This document shows, one piece after another, positions 7,410 to 39,157 of a stretch of 64,000 nucleotides of DNA. Position numbers and translations under genes: made by a program. A model generated the notes under the pieces. The model saw only the letters and a list, made by a program, of their open reading frames with translations. It was not told the DNA's origin and did not search any database. The stretch comes from an uncultured Cetobacterium sp. (lineage in GTDB: Bacteria > Fusobacteriota > Fusobacteriia > Fusobacteriales > Fusobacteriaceae): positions 1-64,000 of the forward strand of contig CASFCG010000016.1 of the NCBI GenBank assembly GCA_949293295.1, in the 5' to 3' direction. Numbering within the stretch: position 1 is the stretch's first letter; every line of letters begins with the position of its first letter.

Positions 7410-7432
7410 GAGTGCTATAATTGTAGCACTCT
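7409..7432 (+). promoter_or_regulatory. Intercistronic hairpin between ulaA and ulaB
   Basis: AGAGTGCTA (7409-7417) and TAGCACTCT (7424-7432) form a perfect 9-bp stem with a 6-nt loop and no T-run. It probably stabilises or delimits the mRNA between the membrane gene and the soluble PTS genes rather than terminating. Confidence 0.6.
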
Positions 7433-7452
7433 AAATTATAGGAGGTATAAAA

Positions 7453-7731
7453 ATGATAAAATTATTAGCAGTTTGTGGAAATGGAATGGGAACAAGTATG
7501 ATGATGAAAATGAAAGCAAAAGCTATTTTAGATAAACATAGTATCCAAAATAGCTGTGATAATTGTAGTATTGGGCAGGCTAAATCATCAATATCAAATT
7601 ATGATATAGTAATATCTTCAACACATTTAGCTTCTCAATTAACTCCAAACAATAAAACAAAAATAATTGCTTTAAAAAATATTTTAGATGTAAAAGAGAT
7701 GGAAGAAAGAATATTAGAAGCATTAAAATAG
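7453..7731 (+). CDS. ulaB: PTS ascorbate-specific EIIB component
   Basis: Cytoplasmic 92-residue phosphocarrier; Cys8 in LLAVCGNGMGTSMMM is the phosphorylation site accepted from UlaC and passed to ascorbate bound to UlaA. The sequence keeps the Rossmann-like EIIB pattern (SSTHLA, ALKNILD). AGGAGG precedes ATG 7453. Slightly shorter than E. coli UlaB (about 101). Confidence 0.93.
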   Translation: MIKLLAVCGNGMGTSMMMKMKAKAILDKHSIQNSCDNCSIGQAKSSISNYDIVISSTHLASQLTPNNKTKIIALKNILDVKEMEERILEALK

Positions 7732-7756
7732 AGATTAATGAAGGGGAGAGAGTTTA

Positions 7757-8200
7757 ATGGAACTTAGAAAATCTTTAATAGAAAATAACTCTATAGCTAT
7801 TAATCAAACAGCTTCGGATTGGAGAGAAGCTATAAAGCTATCAACGGATATGTTGGTAAAATCGGGAGCAGTTGAAGAGCGATACTACAACGCAATAATA
7901 GATAAAACCTTAGAATATGGAGCTTATTACATAATAGTTCCAGGGGTTGCAATGCCTCATGCTAGACCAGAAGATGGTGTTAAAAAAGATAGTTTTAGCT
8001 TGGTAACTTTGAGGGAGCCAGTTAGTTTTGATAAGGAAAATGATAATATAAGAGTTATAATAACATTGGCAGCTAAATCAAACGATAGTCATAATGAGTT
8101 TGGATTAATGCAAGTCGCAGATTTATTTGAAAATGAAGAAAATATTGAAAAAATAAAGAATGCAAAAACAATAGATGAGATATTAGAAATAATAAAATAG
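7757..8200 (+). CDS. ulaC: PTS ascorbate-specific EIIA component
   Basis: A 147-residue EIIA of the mannitol/fructose type that receives phosphate from HPr on His68 (GVAMPHARPEDG) and passes it to UlaB. NDSHNEFGLMQVADLF is characteristic of the ascorbate branch. AAGGGGAGAG lies before ATG 7757. The EIIA domain at the C-terminus of the upstream PRD regulator has the same FPHA/MPHA motif. Confidence 0.93.
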   Translation: MELRKSLIENNSIAINQTASDWREAIKLSTDMLVKSGAVEERYYNAIIDKTLEYGAYYIIVPGVAMPHARPEDGVKKDSFSLVTLREPVSFDKENDNIRVIITLAAKSNDSHNEFGLMQVADLFENEENIEKIKNAKTIDEILEIIK

Positions 8201-8218
8201 TGGAATGGAGGAAAAGAA

Positions 8219-8854
8219 ATGAGACCGTTATTACAAGTGGCTTTAGATAGTAATAGTTTAAGTGAAGGATTAAAAGTTGCAAATATTTTAGGGGATGAAG
8301 TTGATGTTTTAGAGGTAGGGACAATTTTATGTCTACAAGAGGGAATGGAACCAGTTAGATGTTTGAGAGCTCTTTTTCCTAATAAAATAATATTAGCAGA
8401 TACAAAGTGTGCGGATGCAGGAGGAACAGTTGCAAAAAATTGTAAGAATGCTGGAGCGGATTGGATGACAGTTATTTGTAGTGCCACTATTCCAACAATG
8501 CAGGCAGCTTTCAAAGAAATAGATGAACTACAGGTTGAATTATATGGAAATTGGACAATGGAAGATGCAAAAAAATGGAAAGAGATAGGAATAACTCAAG
8601 CTGTTTATCATCAAAGTAGAGATGCATTATTAGCTGGTGAAAGTTGGGGAAAAAAGGATTTAGATAGAGTCCAGGCTCTTATAGATATGGGATTTAAAGT
8701 TTCTGTAACAGGTGGTTTAGAGTTAGAAACATTGAAGTTATTTGCAGGAATGAATATCTATTGTTTTATAACAGGTAGGTCATTGAGAGAAGTGGAGGAC
8801 CCAAAAGCAGAAGCTAAGAAATGGAAAGAGGAGATAAAAAGAATCTGGGGGTAG
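8219..8854 (+). CDS. ulaD: 3-keto-L-gulonate-6-phosphate decarboxylase
   Basis: A 211-residue TIM-barrel of the orotidine-monophosphate-decarboxylase suprafamily, converting 3-keto-L-gulonate 6-phosphate to L-xylulose 5-phosphate with Mg2+. LADTKCADAGG corresponds to the DxKxxD catalytic motif region and VTGGLELETL / FITGRSLRE to the phosphate-binding strands. ATG 8219 follows GGAGG. Seven bases separate it from ulaE. Confidence 0.94.
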   Translation: MRPLLQVALDSNSLSEGLKVANILGDEVDVLEVGTILCLQEGMEPVRCLRALFPNKIILADTKCADAGGTVAKNCKNAGADWMTVICSATIPTMQAAFKEIDELQVELYGNWTMEDAKKWKEIGITQAVYHQSRDALLAGESWGKKDLDRVQALIDMGFKVSVTGGLELETLKLFAGMNIYCFITGRSLREVEDPKAEAKKWKEEIKRIWG

Positions 8855-26394: not shown

Positions 26395-27846
26395 ATGGAA
26401 ACTATTTTTGAGATTTTAAGATTAAGCCCTGTTCTTGTATTGGCGACGCTGATATTTAACGAAATGGATGTGTTATTAGCGGCTCCAATAGCAACAGTAT
26501 ATGCATCAATAGTGGCTCATTTTGTGGATAAAAAGAGGGTTAGTGAGATTATGGATGCAATAATAAATAATGCTAAAGATATGCAAATAGCGTTTTTTAT
26601 TTTAATGATGGCATACGCCATGGCAGAGGTTTTTATGGCGACTGGAGTCGGAGCAGCAATTATTAAATTAGCATTAAATGTAGGATTAACAGGTAGAACT
26701 GTTGCAGTTGTTGGTGTATGTGTGTCAGCTGTATTGTCAATTGCTACAGGAACTAGTTGGGGAACCTTTGCAGCATGTGCTCCGATTTTTCTGTGGTTAA
26801 ATCATATTGTTGGCGGAAGTATTCCTTTGACAATAGGTGCTATAGCTGGTGGAGCTTGTTTCGGGGATAATATCGGTCTAATATCGGATACAACAATAGT
26901 TAGTTCTAGTATTCAAAAAGTTGAGGTTGTTAAAAGAATTAGACATCAAGGTGTGTGGTCTGTATTGGTTTTACTTTCTGGAGTTATAGTGTTTTATGTA
27001 ATGGGAATTATATTGAATCTTCCAATAACTTCGGGAGATGCTGTAGAGGCTATAAATAATATCCCAAATGATGTATGGGCAATTTTGGCAGAGAAAAGAG
27101 AATCAGCTGTAAAATTATTAAATCAAGTAAAAACAGGAGTTCCTATCTATATGATAGTACCACTAATTTTTGTTTTAATTGCAGCATTTAGAGGGATGCC
27201 AACTATGTTATGCTTATTAATAGGGATTGTATCAGCTTTCCTATTTGGAAGAGTAGCGGGAACTGTAAAAGATATTAATTCATTTTTAGAACTTATATCA
27301 AGTGGATTTGTAAACGCTGGTTCATGGGTAATAATAATGATGATGTGGATTGCAGCTTTTGGTGGAGTGATGAAGATGATGAATGCGTTCAGACCATTAT
27401 CTAGAGTGATTATAAAGGTTTCGAGAAATGTTAGACAGTTGATGTTTTGTAACGGAGTATTGTCAATATTGGGAAATGCAGCCTTAGCTGATGAGATGGC
27501 ACAAATAGTTACCATAGGACCGATTATAAGAGAAACGGTTGAGAACAATGTCGAAGGAGATAAAGAGGATATGGAGACTTTGAGGTTAAGAAATGCAACA
27601 TTTAGTGATGCATTAGGTGTTTTTGGTTCACAACTTATCCCATGGCATGTGTATATAGGATTTTATTTAGGAATAGCCCAAGCGGTTTACCCGATATATA
27701 AGTTTGAAGCAATAGATATAATTAAATATAATTTTTTAGCTATAATAGCTGTTGTATCCATTCTTTTATTTACTTTGACTGGTCTTGATAGAATGATACC
27801 TAGATTCTCATTACCTCAGGAACCAAATGTAAAGTTAAAAAAATAG
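26395..27846 (+). CDS. NhaC-family transporter, predicted lysine transporter (LysW type)
   Basis: The 483-residue protein has about 12 membrane segments with NhaC-superfamily motifs SIATGTSWGTFAACAPIFL and GGACFGDNIGLISDTTIVSS, and a second-half NAALADEMAQIVTIGPIIRE. NhaC annotations mean Na+/H+ antiport, but L-box control and published comparative genomics of NhaC-like LysW proteins point to lysine uptake. I chose ATG 26395, with GGGAGG upstream, over ATG 26374, which lies inside the T-run side of the terminator. Terminator at 27857. Confidence 0.85.
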   Translation: METIFEILRLSPVLVLATLIFNEMDVLLAAPIATVYASIVAHFVDKKRVSEIMDAIINNAKDMQIAFFILMMAYAMAEVFMATGVGAAIIKLALNVGLTGRTVAVVGVCVSAVLSIATGTSWGTFAACAPIFLWLNHIVGGSIPLTIGAIAGGACFGDNIGLISDTTIVSSSIQKVEVVKRIRHQGVWSVLVLLSGVIVFYVMGIILNLPITSGDAVEAINNIPNDVWAILAEKRESAVKLLNQVKTGVPIYMIVPLIFVLIAAFRGMPTMLCLLIGIVSAFLFGRVAGTVKDINSFLELISSGFVNAGSWVIIMMMWIAAFGGVMKMMNAFRPLSRVIIKVSRNVRQLMFCNGVLSILGNAALADEMAQIVTIGPIIRETVENNVEGDKEDMETLRLRNATFSDALGVFGSQLIPWHVYIGFYLGIAQAVYPIYKFEAIDIIKYNFLAIIAVVSILLFTLTGLDRMIPRFSLPQEPNVKLKK

Positions 27847-27856
27847 TAAATCTATG

Positions 27857-27896
27857 AGTTATGTAAATTTAATAATTTATTTACATAACTTTTTTA
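27857..27896 (+). terminator. Terminator of the lysine transporter gene
   Basis: AGTTATGTAAAT (27857-27868) pairs perfectly with ATTTACATAACT (27879-27890), followed by TTTTTT. Confidence 0.9.
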
Positions 27897-28211
27897 TTTA
27901 TTCATAAAAAAGATGAAAATAGGAAAAGGATTAATATAATATGTGAAGAACAAACAGGAGATATTTTTATAATTTTATTGAGAATTTTAAAAATTGAGTT
28001 ATAATTGAAGTAGCTGTTGGCTCGAAAAATATTCATAGTGTAGTTTTAATATTAGAAAATATAAAAAATATTAATAAATAAAATACGGAGTTAATCATAT
28101 AAATTTAGGTAAGGAATTGACTGTAAAACAGGATGGATAGGCTAAGTTTATTACTAACTATTTATCAAGAAGTTTGGAAAATCAACTCTAATTATTATAA
28201 AAATTCTAAAA
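27897..28211 (+). other. Gene-free stretch with possible decayed coding fragments
   Basis: No intact gene. On the plus strand one frame reads VAVGSKNIHSVVLILENI before a stop near 28079, and another reads KYGVNHINLGKELT then, past one TAG, AKFITNYLSRSLENQL, stopping near 28188. Such stretches read like coding sequence broken by stops and a frameshift, but they are short and I cannot name a parent family. Confidence 0.3.
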
Positions 28212-28212
28212 T

Positions 28213-28250
28213 AAAATGGTTATAGAAAGGTTTTTGTCTATAACCATTTT
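28213..28250 (-). terminator. Terminator of secreted-protein gene A
   Basis: AAAATGGTTATAGA (28213-28226) pairs perfectly with TCTATAACCATTTT (28237-28250). On the minus strand it is followed by ATTTTAGAATTTTT. Confidence 0.75.
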
Positions 28251-28256
28251 AGCTAA

Positions 28257-28985
28257 TTATCTAACTCTTACAGCAATTTTAACATTAGTTGAAATATCTT
28301 TTCCTCCAGCAAATTGCTTATTGATTACTTGCATACGGTCTCCTAATCCAGTTTCATTATTATTACCATTAGTAATTTCTAGAACTCCTTTTTCTGTTAC
28401 TGAGAAATTTATGTCTTTACCTCCTCTATAATTTCCTACGTCAGTTACAGTAAATCCTTTATTCCCCCATCTAAGCTCTGAAGTATTTAACTCAGAATTT
28501 ACAGCAGCAATAACAGCATTTAGTTCATCTTGCACTAATAATTCAAATGCAGTAGTAGAAAATGAAGCGCTTGTACCAAACCAACTTGATTGAGAAGATA
28601 CTTTTGACGAATCTAAACATACCATAAATTCTATCTCTTCTACAGAATTTAATTCTTCGACTGTTTCTTGTCCAGTTGTTCCAGTAACTCTTTTTACATA
28701 AACTTTAGGGTTTTCTTCTTTAAATCCAGCTAATGATGAATCATGACTGATTACAAAATCATTTAGTTGAAGAACATCTTCTTTTGTAACTCCATTATCA
28801 TCAGAAGCATAGACAACATATTTAATAACAGGTATATCAGATGTAACTTTACCAGTAACAGAGATAGCTCCCTCTTGTAATGTTTGGAAAACGTTAGTTC
28901 CATCTGTAGGAGTAGCTCCTAAATCTACTTCTGCAGCAAAAGAAATAGCTGATACAGCTATTAATCCAAATAAAATCTTTTTCAT
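28257..28985 (-). CDS. Small secreted protein A, paralogue of the one at 36463
   Basis: 242 residues: a Sec signal peptide MKKILFGLIAVSAISFAA, then a predicted 223-residue mature, acidic protein. It shares with the protein at 36463 the signal peptide, TN[VI]FQT, [IV]KY[AV]V[FY][AS][SA]DD and VYV[KR]R near the same positions, while the C-terminal halves differ. It has one Cys (FMVCLDSS) and ends VKIAVRVR, not the terminal Phe of a barrel. No known domain is recognised; periplasmic or surface location is inferred. It has its own terminator, and its leader matches that of the paralogue for at least 30 bp. Confidence 0.8.
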   Translation of the reverse strand: MKKILFGLIAVSAISFAAEVDLGATPTDGTNVFQTLQEGAISVTGKVTSDIPVIKYVVYASDDNGVTKEDVLQLNDFVISHDSSLAGFKEENPKVYVKRVTGTTGQETVEELNSVEEIEFMVCLDSSKVSSQSSWFGTSASFSTTAFELLVQDELNAVIAAVNSELNTSELRWGNKGFTVTDVGNYRGGKDINFSVTEKGVLEITNGNNNETGLGDRMQVINKQFAGGKDISTNVKIAVRVR

Positions 28986-29410
28986 AATATAATCCTCCTA
29001 AATTTTTATTTATTCTATAAAAAGTAAAAACTTTTGATAGCTAATTACTATTTTTAATTAAAATTTAATTTACACAAAAGATTAAAACTTAAAGTAAGTT
29101 TTAATTTTTATTGAATTTATTAATCTACTTAAATCTGCTAAAAAGTTTTATTTTTTTGAAATCTTAGTTTTATTTCAATCTTAGTTTTATTTCACATAAA
29201 AAAATCAGAGTTAAATTGCTATTTTCTTTTTTATTCATTTCTTATGCAAAAATTATCTTCAAAGAGATTAATTAATACAAAATATCTTTGTTTATATATC
29301 TCTTAAAAATTCCATTTTTTACTTAAAATAGGATTAAATTTTATTAATTTCTAACTTTTTAAATTTTCCAATTTTCACAAAAAAATAAAATTCATTATAA
29401 AAATCCTTTT
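28986..29410. other. AT-rich leader region of gene A with a 17-bp tandem repeat
   Basis: The first 50 bp hold the ribosome binding site and a leader (TATTCTATAAAAAGTAAAAA at 29013-29032) shared with gene B. ATCTTAGTTTTATTTCA occurs twice in tandem at 29161-29177 and 29178-29194. The remainder is very AT-rich and I see no gene in it. Confidence 0.6.
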
Positions 29411-29437
29411 AGTCCCCAGTCTCTAAGGAGGCTGGGA
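29411..29437. repeat. GC-rich hairpin, copy 1
   Basis: CCCAGTCTC (29415-29423), loop TAAG, GAGGCTGGG (29428-29436): nine pairs, one wobble. A similar hairpin with partly compensated bases lies at 37444-37465 at the equivalent place of the second locus. Its look (AGTCCCC...CTAAGGAGG...GGGAGTTC) recalls the subterminal hairpin or omega-RNA end of IS200/IS605 elements, but no tnpA or tnpB is present. Confidence 0.5.
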
Positions 29438-29530
29438 GTTCTAAAATCATGAAAAATTTTTGTTAAAGAGGTTCTACCGCTTGAACCTAAATGTTGTAAA
29501 AACCCAGTAACAGTGGTATTAAAATGAAAA

Positions 29531-29699
29531 GTGTCTATCTGGGGTATACCCCAAATAGACACAAAAAATAAAAAAGAAAGCAAAAATTTAGCGAACTAAA
29601 CTTTTGCTTTTTATTCTAAAGTTATTCTTTTTATACACGAAAATTTTTAAATTTTCACAAATTTTTGTGTCTAAATAGAGTATACCCTAAATGGACACT
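29531..29699. mobile_element. Palindrome-ended ~169-bp element, copy 1 (MITE-like)
   Basis: Each end is a 32-bp near-palindrome centred on GGGGTATACCCC-like sequence: left 29531-29562 starts GTGTCTATCTGGGG and ends AAATAGACAC; right 29668-29699 starts GTGTCTAAATAGAG and ends AAATGGACAC. Between them lies a hairpin (AAAGCAAAAATTTAG, CGAA loop, CTAAACTTTTGCTTT, 29577-29611). Nearly identical to 37572-37739. No coding capacity beyond chance frames. Confidence 0.6.
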
Positions 29700-29937
29700 A
29701 CATTAATTTTACCATAAAAAATCTATTTTTATTCCTTTTTAAGAAGTTTAATTTTAGATAACTAATTACTTCACGATATGATTATTTATATAATATAGAG
29801 TCATAATTTTAATTAATTTATAAAATTAATAGTAAAAATATATAAACTTTAAAGTTTTTTATAAAAATTATTGATTATAATAAGCCATGTGTTTATGTTA
29901 TAATTTCAAAGTGTATAATTTAACTTGGAGGTAAAGT

Positions 29938-30996
29938 GTGAAAAAGATAGGTGTATTATTGATTAGCTTAGTGTTTATAGCGTGTGGAAAGAGTGATGGT
30001 CATACAACTAAAATTGAAAATCTAAAAACAGTAAAAACTCTTTCTATATCTCCACAATCAATTTTGAAAATTGAATCCTCTTCAGGTATTGCTGAGCCAT
30101 TAGTCGAAGTTACAGAGATAAGCAAATCTGGAGGAGATGTAGAGAAAATAAATTTTAGAAATGGGGAAAGAGTAAAAAAGGGAGAGCTTATTCTAGAACT
30201 GTCAAATGATGAGATATCAGCTAACTTTTTAAAGGCGGAGGCAACTTATTTTTCAGCCAAAAATGATTTTAAAATTAAAGAGGAAAATTTTAATAAATTT
30301 AGTAAACTTTTTAAGAATAGTTTGATTTCACAAGATGAGTTTTCAAATAAAAAAATTGAATATCTTCAGAGTCAATCAAATTTGAAAAATGCAGAGGCTT
30401 CATTTAATTTAGCCAAGAAAGATTATGATGATTTAAAAGTTATAGCGAAGATAGATGGAGTTATAAGTGATTTAAATCTAAAAAAATATGAAAAAATATC
30501 AGCTAATTCAGAGTTGTTTACGATAGTTAATAATGAGAAAATATTAGTTACAGCTTCTATTTCGCCAACTGATGTGAATAATATTGGAAAAAATATTAGT
30601 GCCGAAATAAGATTTGAAGGAATCGAGAGAATTTATCCTGCGAAATTATATGAGATAAATCCCGTAGCAAATAAAGAAAACAATAAATATTCTATAAAAT
30701 TGGAAGTTGAAAATAGTGATTTTTTGATAAAAAAAGGGATGTATTCAGATATACTATTGAATACAGGTGAGAAAACAGGATATATAATTCCTAAGAAAGC
30801 TATTGTGTTGAAAGAGTTATTTTCTTATATTTTCATTGTTGAAAATAATCAAGCCAGAATGATAAAAGTGGAGCGAGGTTATGAAAATGGAGAGAATCAA
30901 GAGATAAAAAGTGATCAGCTATATCCAAATATGAGTTTAGTTATTGAAGGACAATACCTTTTAGAGGATAGAGATAAAATTAAGATTATAGAGTAG
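29938..30996 (+). CDS. RND efflux periplasmic adaptor (membrane fusion) lipoprotein
   Basis: 352 residues, GTG start with TTGGAGG upstream. MKKIGVLLISLVFIAC is a lipoprotein signal (lipobox FIAC). VEKINFRNGERVKKGELILELSND is the barrel-sandwich/lipoyl motif (about 65-90), followed by a coiled-coil hairpin (about 95-150), the second lipoyl half (KVIAKIDGVISDLNLKKYEKIS) and the beta-barrel domain. It links the RND pump to an outer-membrane channel; none is encoded nearby. Operon with the permease 8 bp downstream. Confidence 0.93.
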   Translation: MKKIGVLLISLVFIACGKSDGHTTKIENLKTVKTLSISPQSILKIESSSGIAEPLVEVTEISKSGGDVEKINFRNGERVKKGELILELSNDEISANFLKAEATYFSAKNDFKIKEENFNKFSKLFKNSLISQDEFSNKKIEYLQSQSNLKNAEASFNLAKKDYDDLKVIAKIDGVISDLNLKKYEKISANSELFTIVNNEKILVTASISPTDVNNIGKNISAEIRFEGIERIYPAKLYEINPVANKENNKYSIKLEVENSDFLIKKGMYSDILLNTGEKTGYIIPKKAIVLKELFSYIFIVENNQARMIKVERGYENGENQEIKSDQLYPNMSLVIEGQYLLEDRDKIKIIE

Positions 30997-31004
30997 GTGA
31001 AATA

Positions 31005-34000
31005 ATGAGTATTGCAAAATTTTCAATAAAACATTCTGTTACAACTATGATGATTATTATCTCAATGATTATCTTAGGTTTTTTAACTTTAGTAAATTTA
31101 AAAACGGAGCTTATGCCTAACTCCAATCTTCCCATGGCGAGTATTAGAGTGAGTTGGAAAGGTGCTTCTCCAGAGGATATGGAGAAACTGGTTACAACTG
31201 AGATTGAATCAGCATTGGGAGATGTAGAGGGAATAAAAAGGGTAACAACGAACTCAACATTTGGAAGTTCGAATATATCTGTTGAGTTTAATTATGGAGT
31301 TAATATTGATAATAAAGTTAATGATTTAGTTACAGCTGTGAGCAAGGTCAGAAACAGTTTACCAGATGATATAAATGAACCAGTAGTTAGAAAAAGTGGG
31401 GCTTCAAACTCAAGAGTTTTGTTGATTGGTGTCAATGGAAAAGATTTAATAACATTAAAGACTTATATTGATAATATTTTGACTCCAAGACTTGAAAAAA
31501 TTGAAGGTGTTGAAAGTGTGGATAGTTTTGGTGGATTAAATAAAGAGATTAAGGTTGAAATTAATCCTGAAAAGCTAGAGAAGTATAATCTAACTGTAAT
31601 GGAATTATATAATCTTTTGAATAATTCTAGTTTAAATTTTCCTGCTGGATATATCACAGATGGTGGAAAAGAGTTTTTAGTTAAACTTTCAGCAGAAGTA
31701 AAGACTCTTGAAGATATTCAAAAAATCATATTAAAAAATGTAGATGGAAAAACTCTGTATTTAAGTGACGTTGCAGATATTACGTTGGGAGTAAAAGACC
31801 GTTCAAATTATGGTAGAGTTAATGGAAATGATAATATTATTGTCAGTGTGAGCAAAAGTGATTCAGGAAATACAGTTGATATCTCAAAAAGAGTTCAAGA
31901 GGAGTTAAAAAGAATAGAGTCTACTTTGCCAGAAGGAGCTTCTTTCACTATTATAAGGGATAGTGCAAGAGATATAACTCGTTCTATTTCGACAGTAAAA
32001 AGTAATGCGATTACAGGTTTATTTTTAGCTTCTGTTATCTTGTTCATCTTTTTAAGAGATATTCGTGCAACTTTGGTCGTTGCAATATCTATTCCAGTTT
32101 CTATCATGGCAACATTTGGTTTTTTTGGAGCAAAGGGGATGACTTTAAATATAATTTCACTTATGGGGCTCTCTTTAGGGGTTGGAATGCTTGTTGATAA
32201 TTCCATTGTTGTTTTAGATAATATTTTTAGACATCTGACGGAGTTGAAAAAGGATAGAGTTGAGGCGTCAGAATCGGGAGCAACAGAGGTTGTTGTTCCA
32301 ATAATAGCTTCCACAGCTACAACAATTGCTGTGTTTTTACCGATTGTATTGAGAGAGGGAAGAGCAAAAGAAACATATCAAGATATGGCTTATTCCATAA
32401 CTTTTTCGTTGATAGCTTCATTGTTAATTGCAGTAACTTTTATTCCTATGATATCAAGTAAAATTTTAAATAAGAATATAAAACTGCATCAGGATGGAAA
32501 AATTTTAAATTATGTAAAAAAGAGATATGAGAAACTTTTGAAGTGGAGTTTATCACATGTTTCATTAATTATATTTTTAACCATAAGTTTATTTTGTAGT
32601 GTCATGTGGATTGGAAATAGATACATCGGAGGAGAGTATATGCCGAGAACAGATGATGGTATCTATAGTGTTATAGCAGAACTTCCGACAGGTATGGAGC
32701 TTGAAAAAGCAAATGGTGTAGCGAAAATTATTGAAAATATTGTATCTAAAAATAGATATACTAAAAAATATAATGCTTCTATTAATAAAGAGAGTGCCTC
32801 TATCATGGTAGATGTTGGAGATAAAGATGAGAGGGATAAGAGTGTTCAAGATATTATTGCTGAAGTTAGAAAAGAGGTAGGAACTATTCCAGACGTAAAA
32901 CTTAATTTTCTTCCTTTTATGAATTTTGGACGTGGTGGTTCTAAAGATTTAAAAGTAATTTTAAAATCTGATGACTTAGTTCAATTAGAGTACATATCTA
33001 AAGAGCTAATGAATAGAATGGAGAAAAATAAAAGTTTTACGGATATAACAAACTCAATGTTAAATGGAAATCCCGAGGTGAATATTATCTTAGATAGAAA
33101 AAAAATGGAATACTACGGCGTTACTGCTAGAGATTTAACTTTTTCGACGAGTTATCAGATTTTAGGAGGGGTCCCTATAAAAATAAAAACTAGAGTGGAA
33201 GAAGTGGACGTTACAATAAGACTGGCGGAGAAGTATCGTGATTCAATTGATAAACTGAAAAATATTATTATTAAAAGAGGGAATGGAAAAAATGTTTATC
33301 TTGGAGATATTACAAATTTTGTGGTTGGAGAGGGAGCTTATGGAATTGAAAAAGAGGACAAAATAACAATTATTTCAGTTAATGCGAATTTGAATAAAGG
33401 AAGTGACCTTGTAACTGCTCAAAAATCAATAGAAGAGATGATTAAAGAGATGAATATTCCAAAAAGTGTATCTTACTCTTTTGGAGGAGATGGACGAAAT
33501 TTGGCAGAGGTAAACGCGCAACTTTCTTTTGCCTTTGTTGTAGCTATATTTTTGATATATTTTATTTTGGCTTCTCAATTTGAGTCCTATATTCTTCCTA
33601 TTATTGTTATGGGAAGTGTTCCATTATCAATTATTGGTGTTTATAGTGGACTTTTGATAACAGGGCAAAAAACTAATACAATGGTATTTGTTGGAATTAT
33701 TATGTTGGCTGGAATAGTTGTTAATAATGCAATAGTATTAATAGATTATATAAAAATACTGCTTTCAAAAGGTATTGAGTTGAAAGATGCTATTGTTGAA
33801 GCTGGTTTGACAAGGATTAGACCGATTTTTATGACAACGATGACAACAGTATTTGGGATGTTGCCACTTGCCTTGGGAATAGGTCAGGGGAGTGAGATGT
33901 ATAAAGGAATGGCAATTGCAGTAATATTTGGATTGGTTTTTTCAACTTTATTAACCTTGATTTTTATTCCAGTATTATTTTATATCTATAGTAAGTTTGT

Positions 34001-34037
34001 AGAGAGATTTCAAAAAAGAGTTAAAGAGAAGAAATAG
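31005..34037 (+). CDS. RND family efflux permease (AcrB/MexF-like)
   Basis: 1010 residues with the RND layout: TM1 at about 12-30, a periplasmic porter domain, TM2-6 at about 330-480, a second porter domain, TM8-12 at about 850-1000. SLGVGMLVDNSIVVLDNIFRH carries the proton-relay Asp pair in TM4 and GIVVNNAIVLIDYI the repeat equivalent. PNSNLPMASIRVSWKGASPEDMEKLVT is typical of the HAE1/HAE2 groups. Expels drugs or lipids using proton motive force. Terminator at 34092. Confidence 0.94.
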   Translation: MSIAKFSIKHSVTTMMIIISMIILGFLTLVNLKTELMPNSNLPMASIRVSWKGASPEDMEKLVTTEIESALGDVEGIKRVTTNSTFGSSNISVEFNYGVNIDNKVNDLVTAVSKVRNSLPDDINEPVVRKSGASNSRVLLIGVNGKDLITLKTYIDNILTPRLEKIEGVESVDSFGGLNKEIKVEINPEKLEKYNLTVMELYNLLNNSSLNFPAGYITDGGKEFLVKLSAEVKTLEDIQKIILKNVDGKTLYLSDVADITLGVKDRSNYGRVNGNDNIIVSVSKSDSGNTVDISKRVQEELKRIESTLPEGASFTIIRDSARDITRSISTVKSNAITGLFLASVILFIFLRDIRATLVVAISIPVSIMATFGFFGAKGMTLNIISLMGLSLGVGMLVDNSIVVLDNIFRHLTELKKDRVEASESGATEVVVPIIASTATTIAVFLPIVLREGRAKETYQDMAYSITFSLIASLLIAVTFIPMISSKILNKNIKLHQDGKILNYVKKRYEKLLKWSLSHVSLIIFLTISLFCSVMWIGNRYIGGEYMPRTDDGIYSVIAELPTGMELEKANGVAKIIENIVSKNRYTKKYNASINKESASIMVDVGDKDERDKSVQDIIAEVRKEVGTIPDVKLNFLPFMNFGRGGSKDLKVILKSDDLVQLEYISKELMNRMEKNKSFTDITNSMLNGNPEVNIILDRKKMEYYGVTARDLTFSTSYQILGGVPIKIKTRVEEVDVTIRLAEKYRDSIDKLKNIIIKRGNGKNVYLGDITNFVVGEGAYGIEKEDKITIISVNANLNKGSDLVTAQKSIEEMIKEMNIPKSVSYSFGGDGRNLAEVNAQLSFAFVVAIFLIYFILASQFESYILPIIVMGSVPLSIIGVYSGLLITGQKTNTMVFVGIIMLAGIVVNNAIVLIDYIKILLSKGIELKDAIVEAGLTRIRPIFMTTMTTVFGMLPLALGIGQGSEMYKGMAIAVIFGLVFSTLLTLIFIPVLFYIYSKFVERFQKRVKEKK

Positions 34038-34091
34038 ATTAAATAATAATGTATTATTAAATGCAGAACATAATCATTCTAGTTGAGATTG

Positions 34092-34127
34092 AAAAAAAGA
34101 GAGGTTTTAATTTTACTCTCTTTTTTT
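34092..34127 (+). terminator. Terminator of the RND operon
   Basis: AAAAAAAGAGAG (34092-34103) pairs with CTCTCTTTTTTT (34116-34127). Confidence 0.85.
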
Positions 34128-34191
34128 CTTGCTATTTTTTGTGATATAATTATACTGGTAAGCTATAATTTAGATTAAAAAGGTTGATTTT

Positions 34192-34821
34192 ATGAAAAAA
34201 GTTTTAATTTTTGTTTCAAATGGTTTTGAAGCTTTGGAATTATCCCCATTTTTAGATATTTTTGGCTGGAATAATATTTTATGTAAATCTAAGATAAAAC
34301 CTGTTACAGTTTCCATTAGTGATAGTGTAGTTGCAACTTGGAATTTAAAAATTATGCCGGAAATAAATCTAACCAAAGAAACTATTAATATAGACGAATT
34401 TGAAGCATTAATAATTCCAGGTGGATTTGGAAAAGCAGGTTTTTTTAAAGATATTCAATCGGAGATATTTAAAAAATTGTTATATGAGTTCCATAGTCAA
34501 AAAAAATTAATTGTTGGGATATGTACAGGTGCTCTTGCTCTTGCGATAAATGGTATTTTAAAGAAGATTCCAGCTACAACCTATTTAATGGAAAATAAAA
34601 GATATTTTTCACAATTAAAAAAATATGGAGCTATTCCAATAGAAAAAGAGATTGTAAGATATAAAAATATTATTACATCATCGGCTCCAAATACAGCAAT
34701 TTTGATATCTTTTTATCTTGTTGAAGTTCTACTAAGTAAAGAAAATAGAGTTAAGGTTGAAGAGAATACAGGGTTTAAAAATTATTTTAATATTTTTGAT
34801 GAAATTTCATTTATTTTGTGA
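34192..34821 (+). CDS. DJ-1/PfpI family protein
   Basis: 209 residues with a class I glutamine-amidotransferase-like fold: KKVLIFVSNGFEALELSPFLDIF, ALIIPGGFGKAG (oxyanion) and LIVGICTGALALA with the reactive Cys. Members are glyoxalases, chaperones or peptidases; the substrate is not predictable. The C-terminal APNTAILISFYLVEVLL matches the family. Preceded by its own AT-rich promoter region; 44 bp before slyD. Confidence 0.88.
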   Translation: MKKVLIFVSNGFEALELSPFLDIFGWNNILCKSKIKPVTVSISDSVVATWNLKIMPEINLTKETINIDEFEALIIPGGFGKAGFFKDIQSEIFKKLLYEFHSQKKLIVGICTGALALAINGILKKIPATTYLMENKRYFSQLKKYGAIPIEKEIVRYKNIITSSAPNTAILISFYLVEVLLSKENRVKVEENTGFKNYFNIFDEISFIL

Positions 34822-34864
34822 TATTCTTTTATTGATTAATAATAATTTTGTGTGAGGTGTTTTT

Positions 34865-35344
34865 ATGAAAATTGAAAAGGAAAGAGTTGTAACATTGGAT
34901 TTTGTAGTTTATGATAATGACACGAACGAGGTTTTAGAGGATACTAAAGATGTTAGTCCATTCTTTTATATTCATGGAACGGGACAGTTTATACCAAAAA
35001 TTGAAGAGATTCTTGAGGGAAAAGAAAAAGGTTTTTCAACAACTATAATTTTAACTCCTGAAGAGAGTTACGGGGAGTATGATGAAGAGTTGATAGTTGA
35101 GATGAGAAAGGATGAGTTTGTAGAGTTTGAAGATATTTATGAGGGATTGGATTTTATAGCTGATATGGAGGATGGAAGTGAACAATCTTTTATTATTACA
35201 AAAATTGAAGATGATATTGTAGTTGCTGATGGAAATCATCCATTTGCCGGAAAAAATCTAAAGTTTGAAGTTACTGTGTCAGATGTTAGAAAAGCTACAG
35301 ATGAGGAATTAGAACACGGACATGTTCATTTTAATGGATTTTAA
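34865..35344 (+). CDS. slyD: SlyD-like FKBP-type peptidyl-prolyl isomerase
   Basis: 159 residues: FKBP half (VVTLDFVVYDND...PFFYIHGTGQFIPKIEEILEGKEKG), an IF insert flap (about 70-125) and ADGNHPFAGKNLKFEVTVSDVRKATDEELEHGHVH, the defining SlyD C-terminal pattern. The short His tail (HGHVH) may bind nickel, but the long metal-rich tail of E. coli SlyD is missing. Cytoplasmic folding catalyst. Confidence 0.92.
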   Translation: MKIEKERVVTLDFVVYDNDTNEVLEDTKDVSPFFYIHGTGQFIPKIEEILEGKEKGFSTTIILTPEESYGEYDEELIVEMRKDEFVEFEDIYEGLDFIADMEDGSEQSFIITKIEDDIVVADGNHPFAGKNLKFEVTVSDVRKATDEELEHGHVHFNGF

Positions 35345-35371
35345 AATTAAGTTTAGTAAAGGAGTTTAAAT

Positions 35372-35800
35372 ATGAAGATTGCTTTAGGTGCTGACCACGG
35401 GGGTTTTACTTTAAAAGAGATAATAAAAAAACATCTAGTTGAAAAAGGAATTGAGGTAATAGATAAAGGGACTCATTCTCTTGAGTCTGTAGATTATCCT
35501 TTTTACGCACGGGCTGTTGCTTATTCTGTTTTAGAAAAGGAGTCTGATTATGGTATAATTGTTTGTGGTACAGGAATAGGGATATCTATTGCAGCAAACA
35601 GAATAAAAGGGATTCGAGCAGGGCTTTGTTTTAATACTACAATGGCAAGATTAACTCGTGAACATAATGATGCAAATATTTTGGCTTTGGGAGCTAGAAC
35701 AACAGGAGATGTTGTAGCTCTTGATATTGTTGATGAGTTCTTAAAGACAGAGTTTCAGGGAGGAAGACATCTGACACGAATCCAAGAGATTGAGTTGTAG
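35372..35800 (+). CDS. rpiB: Ribose-5-phosphate isomerase B
   Basis: 142 residues with GADHGGFTLKEIIKKHL, the catalytic Cys region GIIVCGTGIGISIAANRIKGIRAGLC and REHNDANILALGAR, all standard for RpiB. Interconverts ribose 5-phosphate and ribulose 5-phosphate, connecting to the pentoses produced by the ula pathway. Thirteen bases before the HIT gene. Confidence 0.95.
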   Translation: MKIALGADHGGFTLKEIIKKHLVEKGIEVIDKGTHSLESVDYPFYARAVAYSVLEKESDYGIIVCGTGIGISIAANRIKGIRAGLCFNTTMARLTREHNDANILALGARTTGDVVALDIVDEFLKTEFQGGRHLTRIQEIEL

Positions 35801-35812
35801 AAAGGAGAAGTT

Positions 35813-36154
35813 ATGGCGACTATTTTTACTAAAATAATTAATAGAGAGATTCCAGCGAGTATTGTTTTTGAAAATGAAAAAGTGATAGCATTTAAAGATA
35901 TAAATCCACAAGCTCCAGTACACATTCTTGTTGTTCCTAAAAAGGAGATTGCGACCTTAAATGATGTTACTAAAGAGGATTTTGAGTATATTACAGCTAT
36001 TTATCAAGCTATACAGGAGATAACAAAAGAATTAGGAATTTCAGAGAAAGGCTATAGAGTTATAACCAACTGTAATTCACATGGAGGTCAAGAGGTGTTT
36101 CATCTGCACTTCCATATTTTAGGAGGGGAGCCTTTAGGAGCTTTAGTTAAATAA
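35813..36154 (+). CDS. HIT family protein (HinT-like nucleotide hydrolase)
   Basis: 113 residues: IFTKIINREIPASIVFENEKVIAFKDINPQAPVHILVVPKKEI and the histidine triad GGQEVFHLHFHILGGEPLG. HinT proteins hydrolyse nucleoside phosphoramidates such as aminoacyl-AMP. AAAGGAG precedes ATG 35813; a terminator follows. Confidence 0.94.
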   Translation: MATIFTKIINREIPASIVFENEKVIAFKDINPQAPVHILVVPKKEIATLNDVTKEDFEYITAIYQAIQEITKELGISEKGYRVITNCNSHGGQEVFHLHFHILGGEPLGALVK

Positions 36155-36163
36155 GGAAGTAGG

Positions 36164-36203
36164 ATAATCATTAGATTTATAAGATCTGATGATTATTTTT
36201 TTA
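36164..36203 (+). terminator. Terminator of the rpiB-HIT unit
   Basis: ATAATCATTAGAT (36164-36176) and ATCTGATGATTAT (36184-36196) pair over 13 positions with a wobble, followed by TTTTTTT. Confidence 0.85.
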
Positions 36204-36356
36204 AAAAGTCAAAGTTTTTAAAATTTAAAATCATTTATGAGAAATTTTGGTTTAAAAAATAAAGTTATAGTAAAATTATAATAAATTATTTAGTTTTTAT
36301 AGTAATTTTGAGATTTGGGAATATATTGGTATTAATTTATAAAATAACAAAATAAA

Positions 36357-36395
36357 AAAGCAAAAACTTAGTGGACTAAATTTTTGCTTTTAAAC
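36357..36395 (-). terminator. Terminator of secreted-protein gene B, same hairpin family as the palindromic element
   Basis: AGCAAAAACTTAG and CTAAATTTTTGCT pair around TGGA; on the minus strand TTTTTTATTTTG follows. The hairpin closely resembles the central hairpin of the elements at 29531 and 37572. Confidence 0.7.
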
Positions 36396-36429
36396 TATAT
36401 TAAATATTTTAACTCTTTGTAATTTTCAT

Positions 36430-36461
36430 GTTTTATGAGCTCCGTCCCCCAGCTATAAAAC
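36430..36461 (-). repeat. Inverted repeat directly after gene B
   Basis: GTTTTAT with AGCT (36430-36440, one bulged base) pairs with AGCTATAAAAC (36451-36461). It abuts the stop codon of gene B. Not followed by T on the minus strand; role unknown. Confidence 0.4.
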
Positions 36462-36462
36462 T

Positions 36463-37221
36463 CTATTTAATTTCTATATCTATATAAAATGTACTTGAAA
36501 TTGGAGTTTTTAATGCTTCAAACATTGGTTTTGCTTCCTCTTCTGTAAATGAAGTAGAAGATGTTACACCGCTATTTTTTGAAAGATACATGTGTACTTC
36601 ACTAGTTGAAGGTTTATATACAAAAAGTTGTTTTGCAAATCTCAAGACTTTTCTAGAACCTTTAAAATGTCCAATAAGTTCTCCATAAGTATTCATATCT
36701 ATATTAGTTACATCTGCTACATTTTCATATGCTTTTTTAGCTAAATCAAGTATTTGAGCTTTTGGGAAAAAAGAGGTAACTGATAAACTATGTCCGGCCC
36801 CTACAGTTTCAACACCTTTACCATTTATAGCAGTATAAGAAGGGTCAAAGCTTGATAAAGTCAATCTAAAAACTTCTGCTACATCTAGATCTGTTATTTT
36901 ATCCCCTACTACTCTTCTTACGTAAATTCTCTTAACAGTATTTGCTTCTTTAAAGTTCATTTTGTCTGTATCTAAACTCAATACTAAAGTTGGTAAAGTT
37001 AATGTATCTTGCGGATTAGTAAATGACGCATCATCTGCTGAAAATACTGCGTATTTTACCATTGGTGCATCGCTTGATGTTATTGTCATATTAACACCTA
37101 TTTTCCCTTTTTGCCCTGTTTGAAATATATTAGTTAGTTCTGCAGCAGGTTTAGTTACATCCAATGGTGCTGCAAATGAAACAACTGACATAGCTGTCAA
37201 ACCCAATAAAATTTTTTTCAT
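36463..37221 (-). CDS. Small secreted protein B, paralogue of the one at 28257
   Basis: 252 residues with a Sec signal peptide MKKILLGLTAMSVVSFAA. The mature part shares TNIFQT, VKYAVFSADD and YVRRVVGDK with gene A, then diverges; B has no Cys and ends STFYIDIEIK. A repeat-free, beta-rich secreted protein is likely. The upstream 30-bp leader, the GC hairpin and the palindromic element are all shared with gene A in the same order, so the two loci are duplicates. No domain recognised. Confidence 0.8.
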   Translation of the reverse strand: MKKILLGLTAMSVVSFAAPLDVTKPAAELTNIFQTGQKGKIGVNMTITSSDAPMVKYAVFSADDASFTNPQDTLTLPTLVLSLDTDKMNFKEANTVKRIYVRRVVGDKITDLDVAEVFRLTLSSFDPSYTAINGKGVETVGAGHSLSVTSFFPKAQILDLAKKAYENVADVTNIDMNTYGELIGHFKGSRKVLRFAKQLFVYKPSTSEVHMYLSKNSGVTSSTSFTEEEAKPMFEALKTPISSTFYIDIEIK

Positions 37222-37440
37222 AATACATCCTCCTAAAATTATAAAATAATTTATTCTATAAAAAGTAAAAACTTTTAATAGCTTTTAAAAATTAAATCTT
37301 TTAATTACGAATTTTTTTATTTAATTTTTCTTACTAAATTGATTTTTAACTAGATTAAGAAATGAAAATCTCATTAATCTTCAATTTTTTTCTTTTTTTG
37401 ATTTCACAAAAAACTAAAATTTATGTTGAAAACTTTCTCA
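37222..37440. other. AT-rich leader region of gene B
   Basis: Contains the shared leader TATTCTATAAAAAGTAAAAA (37253-37272) next to the ribosome binding site, then about 160 bp of AT-rich DNA shorter and diverged from the equivalent part of locus A. No gene seen. Confidence 0.55.
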
Positions 37441-37467
37441 ATGCCCAACCACCAAGGTGGCTGGGAC
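37441..37467. repeat. GC-rich hairpin, copy 2
   Basis: CCCA (37444-37447) with TGGG (37462-37465) and CCAC (37449-37452) with GTGG (37457-37460), loop CAAG, one A-C mismatch. Compared with copy 1, one pair changed T-A to A-T and one wobble became C-G. Confidence 0.5.
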
Positions 37468-37571
37468 TTTTTAAATTATGAAAAAGTTTTATTTGGCTAA
37501 TTAAAAATTGTGTCTATTTTCATGCATAAATATCTTATGAATCCAGTAATATTGGTATTTTAAACAAAAAA

Positions 37572-37739
37572 ATGTCTATCTGGGGTATACCCCAAATAGA
37601 CACAAAAAATAAAAAAGAAAACAAAAATTTAGCGAACTAAACTTTTGCTTTTTATTCTAAAACTATTCTTTTTATACACAAAAATTTTTAAATTTTCACA
37701 AATTTTTGTGTCTGAATAGAGTATACCCTAAATGGACAC
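37572..37739. mobile_element. Palindrome-ended ~168-bp element, copy 2 (MITE-like)
   Basis: Left palindrome 37572-37603 and right palindrome 37708-37739 match copy 1 base for base except a few positions; the central hairpin is the same. Similarity continues about 45 bp to the right (ACCATAAAAAATCTATTTTT, present in both). One single-base deletion relative to copy 1. Confidence 0.6.
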
Positions 37740-37832
37740 TATAGCAATTCTACCATAAAAAATCTATTTTTATTCCTTTATAGGAGTAATGTCAGTGTAG
37801 TAATGATATATCAAATAAAACTTAGTTCAAAT

Positions 37833-37869
37833 AAAAAATTCTCCACCTCAGCGAAATGAGACAGAGAAT
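37833..37869 (-). terminator. Terminator of the HU gene
   Basis: On the minus strand ATTCTC...CTCA, TGAG...GAGAAT form a stem interrupted by a 3x3 internal loop (37838-37869), followed by TTTTTATT. Confidence 0.7.
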
Positions 37870-37889
37870 CAGAACACAAGTAAACAATC

Positions 37890-38180
37890 TTATTTAGCTT
37901 TTGATTTTGCAACTTTTTCAGCAAGTCCTTTTCCTACTCTGAATTTAACAACTTTTTTAGCAGGAACTTTTATTTCTTCTCCAGTTTTAGGATTTCTACA
38001 AACTCTTGCAGCTTGTTTAGTAGTTTCGAATTTTCCAAAACCGATTACAGAAAGGTTATCCCCTTTTACTAAAACCTCTTCTAAAGTTGTGAAAAACCCG
38101 TTTACTAATTTTTCAGCTTCTTTTTTTGTAGATAATTCCATTTTAGTTTGGAATAATGAAATAAACTCTTGTTTTGTCAT
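37890..38180 (-). CDS. HU family DNA-binding protein
   Basis: 96 residues: MTKQEFISLFQTKMELSTKKEAEKLVNGFF, then IGFGKFETTKQAARVCRNPKTGEEIKVPAKKVVKFRVGKGL, the typical HU/IHF beta-arm with the RNPKTG tip. Packs DNA and assists bending. GTG 38183 immediately precedes, but ATG 38180 has AGGAGG at a better distance. Own promoter at 38216-38244 and own terminator. Confidence 0.94.
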   Translation of the reverse strand: MTKQEFISLFQTKMELSTKKEAEKLVNGFFTTLEEVLVKGDNLSVIGFGKFETTKQAARVCRNPKTGEEIKVPAKKVVKFRVGKGLAEKVAKSKAK

Positions 38181-38215
38181 CACAAATCCTCCTATTTTAT
38201 TAATTAAGTAAATTG

Positions 38216-38244
38216 ATTATATCCTATTTCTTGAAATAGTGCAA
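38216..38244 (-). promoter_or_regulatory. HU promoter with inverted repeat in the spacer
   Basis: On the minus strand TTGCAC (38239-38244), 17 bp, TATAAT (38216-38221). CTATTTC (38224-38230) and GAAATAG (38233-38239) are inverted arms in the spacer, a possible operator. Confidence 0.6.
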
Positions 38245-38319
38245 TAGTTTTTAATAAAAAAAAGAAAAAATCTATATTATATAAAAAAATATGGTACTCT
38301 AGATTAAAAAAATAGTATT

Positions 38320-38826
38320 TTATTGGTTCGTAGATATGAAGTTCTCAATTATTTTTTGCCAAGTTCCCTCTTTTTTTAGAATAAATTCGATAAACTCTCT
38401 TACAGCACCGTCTCCTCCATTTTTAGTTGATGTGAAATCAGAAATTTTTAAAATATCTTCTGAAGAGTTAAGGGGAGCCCCTTTTAATCCACATTTATTC
38501 ATTATGGATAAATCATTGATATCATCCCCCATGTAGGCTATTTTTTCTAGGGTAGTATTGTAATTTTTTAAAATAGTTTCTAAGAGAGAAGATTTATCTT
38601 TTACACCTTGATATATATCGGAAAATCCCAATTCTAGACATCTATTCTCAACAATTTTAGATTTCCTACCAGTGATAGCAATAAATTTTTTTCCTAATTT
38701 AATTGCTTGTGTAATTCCTAAACCATCTTTAACATTAAATGCTTTAATCTCCTCTCCTGAATTAGTAAAATAAAGTTTCCCATCGGTAAGAGTTCCGTCG
38801 ATATCTAAAATAATAATATCAATCAT
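38320..38826 (-). CDS. kdsC: 3-deoxy-D-manno-octulosonate 8-phosphate phosphatase
   Basis: 168-residue HAD phosphatase of the KdsC/YrbI type: IILDIDGTLTDGKLYF with the nucleophile Asp, NVKDGLGITQAIKLG, AITGRKSK, and YMGDDINDLSIM with GLKGAPLNSSEDI. Makes Kdo from Kdo 8-phosphate for lipopolysaccharide inner core, so it is evidence for an outer membrane with LPS. No kdsA/kdsD adjacent. RBS AAAGGAGG. Downstream of rpsT across a terminator. Confidence 0.93.
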   Translation of the reverse strand: MIDIIILDIDGTLTDGKLYFTNSGEEIKAFNVKDGLGITQAIKLGKKFIAITGRKSKIVENRCLELGFSDIYQGVKDKSSLLETILKNYNTTLEKIAYMGDDINDLSIMNKCGLKGAPLNSSEDILKISDFTSTKNGGDGAVREFIEFILKKEGTWQKIIENFISTNQ

Positions 38827-38850
38827 TAGTAACTTAACCTCCTTTTATAT

Positions 38851-38878
38851 AAAAATAAAACTGAGGATTTCCTCAGTT
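38851..38878 (-). terminator. Terminator of rpsT
   Basis: AACTGAGG (38859-38866) and CCTCAGTT (38871-38878) with loop ATTT; on the minus strand it is followed by TTATTTTTAT. Confidence 0.75.
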
Positions 38879-38896
38879 CTACGTAACAGCGAGTTA

Positions 38897-39157
38897 TTAT
38901 AGAGCATTAACTTTAGCAGTTAATCTAGATTTTTTTCTAGAAGCTGTATTTTTTTTCAAAACACCTTTTGTTACAGCTTTATCTAACTCTTTGTAAGCTA
39001 TTGATAAAGCAGCCTTAGCTGTTTCAACCTCTTTAGCTTCAACTGCAACTAATACTTTTTTTATCATAGTTTTAATTCTAGATTTTATTGCTTGATTTCT
39101 TACTCTGTTTCTTTCTGCTATTACAACTCTCTTTTTTGCTGATTTTGAATGTGCCAA
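38897..39157 (-). CDS. rpsT: 30S ribosomal protein S20 (TTG start)
   Basis: 86 residues: AHSKSAKKRVVIAERNRVRNQAIKSRIKTMIKKV...LKKNTASRKKSRLTAKV, the standard S20 sequence. The residue before AHSKSAKKR is encoded by TTG 39155-39157, which has GGGAGG upstream at normal spacing; a longer reading from 39226 would add 23 unrelated residues. E. coli rpsT also starts with UUG and is translationally autoregulated, so the weak start is probably functional. Confidence 0.93.
   Translation of the reverse strand: MAHSKSAKKRVVIAERNRVRNQAIKSRIKTMIKKVLVAVEAKEVETAKAALSIAYKELDKAVTKGVLKKNTASRKKSRLTAKVNAL

What the first reader, a model, noticed from the sequence alone, without database searches (positions are those of the whole stretch)
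28257..37785. Duplicated secreted-protein loci: paralogous gene plus shared leader, GC hairpin and palindromic element
Two 8-kb-separated loci repeat the same order: signal-peptide protein, 30-bp identical leader, AT-rich spacer, covarying GC hairpin, then a nearly identical ~169-bp palindrome-ended element. The proteins keep the N-terminal third but differ in the C-terminal two thirds, while the non-coding element is almost unchanged. Conserved non-coding sequence with diversifying protein ends suggests a gene family expressed or exchanged through the shared flanks, possibly a surface-variation module. I know of no described system of this form.
Basis: partly seen in the sequence, partly recalled or inferred. 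Interest (0 to 1): 0.68.

Follow-up and report, generated by a model that had tools for sequence, protein, structure and literature searches.

The report
Two dozen attenuated pilus-subunit-like gene cassettes
A small-genome relative of the fish-gut bacterium Cetobacterium carries about 24 scattered versions of one secreted, probably pilus-type protein, nearly every one placed behind the same promoter-plus-terminator RNA module, whose activator-like DNA motif occurs exactly once elsewhere in the genome: in front of what looks like the export machinery for that protein.

Summary
The two proteins (28257-28985 and 36463-37221, minus strand) belong to a 24-member, full-length homologous family in a 1.17-Mb draft genome whose nearest named relative is Cetobacterium. 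Eleven congeners lack the family; one other genus has two copies inside a chaperone/usher-like operon.

The "palindrome-ended element" is not a transposon end. Read in gene orientation it is an activator-like dyad (TTCCtAAAAAGGAA), an extended -10 box, and a 168-nt structured RNA ending in two intrinsic terminators, the second being the "palindrome". Of 33 copies, 17 lie 232-710 bp upstream of a family gene in the same orientation; at least four more run off contig ends on the gene side; about nine are solo. Module identity is 92%, against 62-66% for the genes.

The dyad core TCCTAAAAAGGAA occurs exactly seven times in the genome: six at modules and once upstream of the chaperone/usher-like operon at C16:64.2-74.1 kb, just beyond the window. 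That operon's subunit slot is empty.

Best reading: dispersed pilus-subunit cassettes, co-regulated with shared export machinery and each gated by an attenuator leader. Exchange between copies is not supported. Transcription and export are inferred.

The parts
28257..28985 (-). family member A, 242-aa secreted subunit-like protein
   Evidence: member of 24-gene family
29015..29040 (-). proximal hairpin CTATCAAAAGTTTTTACTTTTTATAG just 5' of the Shine-Dalgarno AGGAGG (may also hold a -10 box TAGAAT)
   Evidence: 13 genome matches at up to 3 mismatches allowed, all upstream of family genes, controls 0; alignment
29415..29436 (-). covarying GC hairpin of the leader, loop CCTT-type
29531..29562 (-). 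H4: perfect 14-bp stem plus T run, intrinsic terminator (the 'palindrome')
   Evidence: terminator scan; covariation
29577..29610 (-). H3: UUCG-loop stem plus T run, second intrinsic terminator
   Evidence: terminator scan; 9 of 15 pairs with two-sided change
29531..29698 (-). 168-nt module RNA, from H1 (first palindrome) to H4
   Evidence: fold z-score -9.9; alignment A3
29706..29714 (-). extended -10 box TGGTAAAAT
   Evidence: invariant TGnTAnA columns in 20 copies
29732..29744 (-). -35-region dyad TCTTAAAAAGGAA (consensus TTCCtAAAAAGGAA)
36463..37221 (-). family member B, 252-aa secreted subunit-like protein
37256..37281 (-). proximal hairpin of locus B
37444..37465 (-). covarying GC hairpin of locus B
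37572..37603 (-). H4 terminator of locus B
37572..37739 (-). 168-nt module RNA of locus B
37747..37755 (-). extended -10 box TGGTAGAAT of locus B
37773..37785 (-). -35-region dyad TCCTATAAAGGAA of locus B

Best explanation
The two loci are members of a lineage-specific set of about 24 single-gene cassettes. Each encodes an alternative version of one secreted subunit, probably a pilus or surface-fibre subunit handled by the chaperone/usher-like operon at C16:64.2-74.1 kb. Nearly every cassette has a conserved upstream module: an activator dyad at about -40, an extended -10 promoter, and a 168-nt leader RNA ending in two intrinsic terminators, followed by a GC hairpin and a long AU-rich leader. 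A regulator that binds the dyad would switch on the modules and the export operon together. By default module transcription would stop at the terminators, and read-through (or release by a trans-acting factor) would let an individual subunit gene be expressed. Shown: the family, the module, its association with the genes, the terminators, the covariation, and the dyad at the export operon. Inferred: that the module promoter drives the gene by read-through, that the dyad is an activator site, and that the proteins are pilus subunits.
For: Family: 24 genes (one, on C6, broken in two frames) at E 1e-35 or better in the own genome, none full-length in 11 congeners, two in G036. In G036 one member occupies the slot between two PapD-like chaperone genes directly before an 888-aa usher-like protein, and the second closes the same operon (PapD_N best E 1.5e-6 among the chaperones). 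Congeners carry a different 170-215-aa secreted protein in that same slot. The own operon keeps both chaperones, the usher-like gene, minor genes and a terminal family member, but has only about 0.1 kb in the slot. Module: about 33 copies in the own genome, none convincing in 24 relatives; 17 of 17 gene-associated copies in the same orientation 232-710 bp upstream; fixed -10-to-H4 spacing of 183 nt in almost all copies; 2 sense-strand terminators inside the module against 0.1 expected for the region; H3/H4 covariation above all 500 shuffles; fold z -9.9. Dyad: 7 exact copies genome-wide, 6 at modules and 1 at C16:64055, about 170 bp upstream of the export operon; the control pattern gave 5 hits against 26 at up to one mismatch; absent upstream of the other operons checked. 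Precedent in the phylum: the Fusobacterium nucleatum sRNA FoxJ raises genes that lie behind intrinsic terminators carrying G stretches, proposed as anti-termination (PMC11005410), and H4 carries GGGG.
Against: No transcript data. The proximal block could hold a separate promoter about 30 nt upstream of the start codon (the median 5' UTR in F. nucleatum is 39 nt), which would make the module an independent RNA gene. About nine modules have no family gene behind them. The mature proteins do not match known pilins by sequence (profile against congener slot proteins without signal peptide E=0.035), by Pfam or by fold. The usher-like protein has no usher or PDB match, and in this assembly the own operon's usher-like gene is split by a frameshift.
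Confidence: 0.5

Rival explanations
1. The module is a multi-copy small-RNA gene (about 168 nt, own promoter, own terminators) that lies next to each family gene but acts in trans on the family mRNAs; each family gene is transcribed from a separate proximal promoter.
For: Complete RNA-gene anatomy with strong terminators; solo copies exist without a family gene; the proximal block contains a -10-like TAGAAT at a distance that fits the short 5' UTRs reported for the phylum.
Against: Does not explain why 17 of 17 gene-associated copies are in the same orientation just upstream; no conserved complementarity to the ribosome-binding region was established; the 300-700 nt between module and start codon is itself conserved (inter 73%, leader 81%), which an intergenic spacer need not be.
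Confidence: 0.25
2. The element is a non-autonomous mobile element (MITE- or PATE-like) with palindromic or inverted terminal ends that inserts upstream of these genes.
For: Outer palindrome arms form an inverted repeat conserved even in diverged copies; high copy number; assembly breaks at copies; one copy (L060) looks like a deletion between the two palindromes.
Against: Conservation extends beyond the palindromes on both sides, including a promoter, even in diverged solo copies; the long-range pairing shows no covariation whereas the local hairpins do; placement is strictly oriented; no copies in congeners and no parent transposase was identified (not searched exhaustively).
Confidence: 0.1
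3. Recombination-based antigenic variation: the shared flanks let silent copies replace an expressed copy.
For: Near-identical flanks around diverging genes; dN/dS near 1 in the closest pair.
Against: Each copy has its own promoter region, ribosome-binding site and distinct terminator; N- and C-terminal relatedness agree; no shared 3' flank for double crossover; no slippage tracts.
Confidence: 0.08
4. An ordinary paralogous family whose upstream region is conserved only because the duplications are recent.
For: Duplicated genes share flanks.
Against: Genes are 62-66% identical while the module is 92%, and synonymous divergence is 0.4-1.0 in most close pairs, so the module is under separate constraint or homogenisation.
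Confidence: 0.05

Closest known systems
Chaperone-usher pili of the alternate / class 5 type (CFA/I-like)
   Same: Operon order chaperone - secreted subunit - chaperone - large outer-membrane protein - minor subunits in congeners and G036; PapD_N domain detected in some chaperones.
   Different: Usher and subunits unrecognised by Pfam or PDB; here the subunit is outside the operon in about 24 dispersed copies with their own leaders. F. nucleatum is reported to lack chaperone/usher genes (PMC13432900).
Mycoplasma gallisepticum vlhA family (PMC6258824) and M. agalactiae Vpma (PMC5634654, PMC2268961)
   Same: Large surface-protein gene family in a small genome; shared upstream regulatory sequence.
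   Different: [quoted passage not shown] here no repeats or recombination signs, but a structured leader with terminators. Those proteins are lipoproteins.
FoxJ-regulated terminator-gated genes of Fusobacterium nucleatum (PMC11005410)
   Same: Genes behind an intrinsic terminator with a G stretch, proposed to be opened by a trans-acting RNA; same phylum.
   Different: There the terminators end upstream operon genes; here a dedicated promoter-terminator module is repeated about 33 times. No FoxJ homologue was sought.
Transcription attenuators / terminator-controlled leaders
   Same: Promoter, structured leader, intrinsic terminator, then gene.
   Different: No known sensor domain or Rfam match; tandem terminators; the same module serves many alleles of one gene.

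Membership tests
Chaperone-usher pilus subunit | Encoded with or served by a PapD-like chaperone and an usher | tested here: inconclusive
   G036 members sit in such an operon; chaperones match PapD_N weakly (best E 1.5e-6); usher-like protein unmatched. Own members are dispersed.
Chaperone-usher pilus subunit | Ig-like pilin fold with donor-strand groove, or sequence match to pilins | tested here: not met
   AF2 model pLDDT 88.9 has no significant PDB match (SafA pilin only at E 0.26); no Pfam match; homology to congener slot proteins limited to the signal peptide.
Intrinsic-terminator attenuator | Promoter, then terminator, then gene in the same orientation | tested here: met
Intrinsic-terminator attenuator | Regulated read-through in vivo | not testable with these tools
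   Needs RNA-seq or reporter fusions.
Insertion-sequence derivative (MITE/PATE) | Homology ends at the terminal repeats; target duplication; empty sites | tested here: not met
   Homology extends 45 bp 5' and about 25 bp or more 3' of the palindromes in solo copies; empty sites not testable since congeners are too distant.
Recombining antigenic-variation cassettes | Silent copies lacking expression signals plus one expression site, or mosaic genes | tested here: not met
   Nearly all copies keep promoter-like sequence, RBS and terminator; no N/C incongruence.
Phase-variable genes by slipped-strand mispairing | Long homopolymer or short tandem tracts in promoter or CDS | tested here: not met
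Known Rfam RNA family | Covariance-model match | tested here: not met
   No match at E<=1 in 27000-39000.

The most novel reading that the evidence does not exclude
A pilus-like organelle whose single subunit gene has left its operon and become some two dozen alternative, individually terminator-gated alleles that share an activator with the export machinery, so that each cell displays a chosen or stochastic subset; the terminators may be opened by a trans-acting RNA.
Probability: 0.2. Interest if true: 0.85.

Novelty: new variant of a known kind. Interest (0 to 1): 0.64.

Why it matters
Large variable surface-protein families are known from reduced genomes of mycoplasmas and a few pathogens, usually switched by DNA rearrangement or repeat slippage. 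Here a fish-gut-type fusobacterium appears to have built one with a conserved, structured, terminator-ended RNA leader instead. If leader and export operon are co-controlled, the system is a natural multi-allele test of terminator-gated expression, the mechanism proposed but not proven for FoxJ in Fusobacterium. It also indicates an unannotated chaperone/usher-like system in the genus.

Tried and rejected
Pfam, NCBIfam and PDB sequence searches of the subunit family found nothing useful. Structure searches of a good model against PDB and the viral library gave nothing. The usher-like model without an alignment was too poor to use. The profile match of the family to the congeners' slot proteins (E 3.6e-11) was rejected as evidence of homology after removing the signal peptide (E 0.035). 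The long-range closing stem of the module, although it is the energy minimum, was rejected as the conserved structure because it shows no covariation. Collection scans of GTDB and viral contigs, and plasmid searches, found no relative of the family or the module. Slippage tracts: none of note. One relatives search failed on the server and was repeated smaller.

Full report
Setting. The window is contig C16, bases 1-64000, of a 1.175-Mb draft genome in 26 contigs (82.8% complete, 0.4% contaminated), 30% G+C in the window. Congeners in the same collection are mostly 2.1-3.1 Mb. The best named hit of the window's RND transporter on plasmid records is Cetobacterium somerae (68% identity), with other fusobacteria next, so a small-genome Cetobacterium or near relative is the likely source. 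This is inferred; no name was available.

The observation. The two proteins are members of a family with 24 genes in the genome, one of them (C6) broken in two frames. Members are 238-254 aa, start with a near-constant signal peptide and align over their whole length. The N-terminal half of the mature protein is 40% identical on average and the C-terminal part 20%; close pairs are close in both parts, so divergence rather than domain exchange explains the pattern. dN/dS is higher in the C-terminal part in most close pairs (0.44-0.88 against 0.19-0.56 outside the closest pair), an adhesin-like but not conclusive sign.

The non-coding module. Read in gene orientation, the conserved element is not just two palindromes. 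About 45 bp before the first palindrome lies a dyad TTCCtAAAAAGGAA; then comes an extended -10 box TGnTAnAAT, invariant at its key positions in 20 aligned copies; then the first palindrome H1, a variable AT-rich middle, a UUCG-loop terminator H3 and a perfect palindrome-terminator H4 with a T run. The distance from the -10 to the end of H4 is 183 nt in almost every copy, even where the middle is unrelated. The standard scan finds H3 and H4 of locus A, and H4 of locus B, as sense-strand terminators where the shuffled regions give 0.1-0.2. The 168-nt RNA folds at z = -9.9. H3 and H4 show two-sided changes above all shuffles, whereas the long-range pairing of the two palindromes does not. In diverged solo copies conservation falls to background outside the interval from about -45 (relative to H1) to about 25 nt past H4, which argues against a transposon ending at the palindromes.

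Between the module and the gene lie a covarying GC hairpin and a long AU-rich leader, and just before the Shine-Dalgarno a conserved hairpin CTATYAAAAGTTTTTACTTTTTATAG. That hairpin was found 13 times in the genome at up to three mismatches, always before a family gene; two further genes have changed sequence but keep a stem there. The block also contains a -10-like TAGAAT, so a second promoter cannot be excluded. The loop of the GC hairpin (CCUU or CUCCUU) could pair with the AGGAGG of the ribosome-binding site; this is an observation only, not tested.

Distribution. A sequence model of the module finds about 33 places in the genome and nothing convincing in 24 relatives. Seventeen lie 232-710 bp upstream of a family gene, all in the same orientation. 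Four run off contig ends on the gene side (C3, C4, C11, C25), and four family genes are cut on their upstream side by contig ends (C6, C7, the ends of C12 and C24), so these are probably the same loci split by assembly. About nine copies are solo in intergenic regions. Three further ends are undetermined (C3 right end, C9, C20 right end). Family genes without a module are the second gene of a tandem pair (C15) and the members at C15:9305 and C16:73367. Among 14 complete units, mean pairwise identity is 92% for the module, 73% for the following 110 nt, 81% for the rest of the leader, and 66% and 62% for the two parts of the gene. Each gene has its own, different downstream terminator, so the unit is not a recently copied cassette with common ends.

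The export operon. In another fusobacterial genus (G036) a family member lies between two chaperone-like genes and before an 888-aa usher-like gene, and a second member ends the operon. All 11 congeners have usher homologues, and wherever the operon start was read there is a chaperone - secreted protein - chaperone - usher order with a different 170-215-aa secreted protein in the slot. In the own genome the matching operon is at C16:64229-74089, just outside the window. It keeps both chaperone genes, the usher-like gene (split by a frameshift in this assembly, left as found), minor genes and a terminal family member, but the slot between the chaperones holds only about 0.1 kb. The subunit that should be there exists instead as the dispersed cassettes. 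The membership of this operon in the chaperone-usher class rests on order and on weak PapD_N matches; the usher-like protein itself has no match, and the sequence link between this family and the congeners' slot proteins does not survive removal of the signal peptide.

The link. The core of the dyad, TCCTAAAAAGGAA, occurs exactly seven times in the genome. Six are the -35 regions of modules; the seventh is C16:64055-64067, about 170 bp upstream of the first chaperone gene of the export operon. With one mismatch there are 26 hits, against 5 for the reversed control pattern. It is absent from 450 bp (or the sequence available) upstream of the other chaperone/usher-like operons checked, including the second one in the own genome. 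Chance expectation for one exact match is about 0.1 per genome by base composition (own estimate), and landing in front of this operon is far less likely.

Interpretation. The most economical reading is a set of alternative surface-subunit genes sharing a regulator with their export machinery, each behind a terminator-ended leader that keeps it off or low unless read-through occurs. In the same phylum the sRNA FoxJ is proposed to open such terminators (PMC11005410); H4 has the GGGG stretch such a factor could use, but no such RNA was sought here. The main rival is that the module is a stand-alone small-RNA gene and the family genes use the proximal promoter. Transcript mapping would separate them at once. 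A mobile-element origin and recombination between copies are less likely for the reasons given.

Limits. Everything rests on one draft metagenome-type assembly; copy numbers are lower bounds; no expression data exist; protein function is inferred from gene order.

Noticed in passing
G000:C16:64229-74089 (L108), just beyond the window end: Chaperone/usher-like operon with an empty subunit slot; its usher-like gene is split into two overlapping frames (L108:5758-7305 and 7302-8756), either an assembly error or a broken gene.
   Followed up: partly
G000:C12:39.7-47 kb (L048, L078, L080): A second, intact chaperone/usher-like operon with its own different 181-aa secreted protein; F. nucleatum is reported to lack this pathway, so its presence in the genus is worth annotating.
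   Followed up: partly
L060 (G000:C16:129213-129378): A solo module in which the stretch between the two palindromes is missing and the remaining palindrome looks like a hybrid of the first and second, as if the two had recombined.
   Followed up: no
L058 (G000:C24:52502-54000): A diverged solo module 520 bp upstream of a DnaG-like primase gene, in the same orientation.
   Followed up: no
L056 (G000:C12:23339-24024): Two diverged modules in tandem, followed by a gene for a different secreted protein.
   Followed up: no
L077 (G000:C15:9000-10037): A family member without a module, followed by an ORF whose start resembles the N-terminus of S6-type autotransporter proteases (impression from sequence, not tested).
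   Followed up: no
G000:C6:104-837 (L039): A family member interrupted by a frameshift, possibly a pseudogene.
   Followed up: no
window 36349-36391: A hairpin very similar to the module's H3 terminator lies between the convergent HIT-family gene and family gene B.
   Followed up: no
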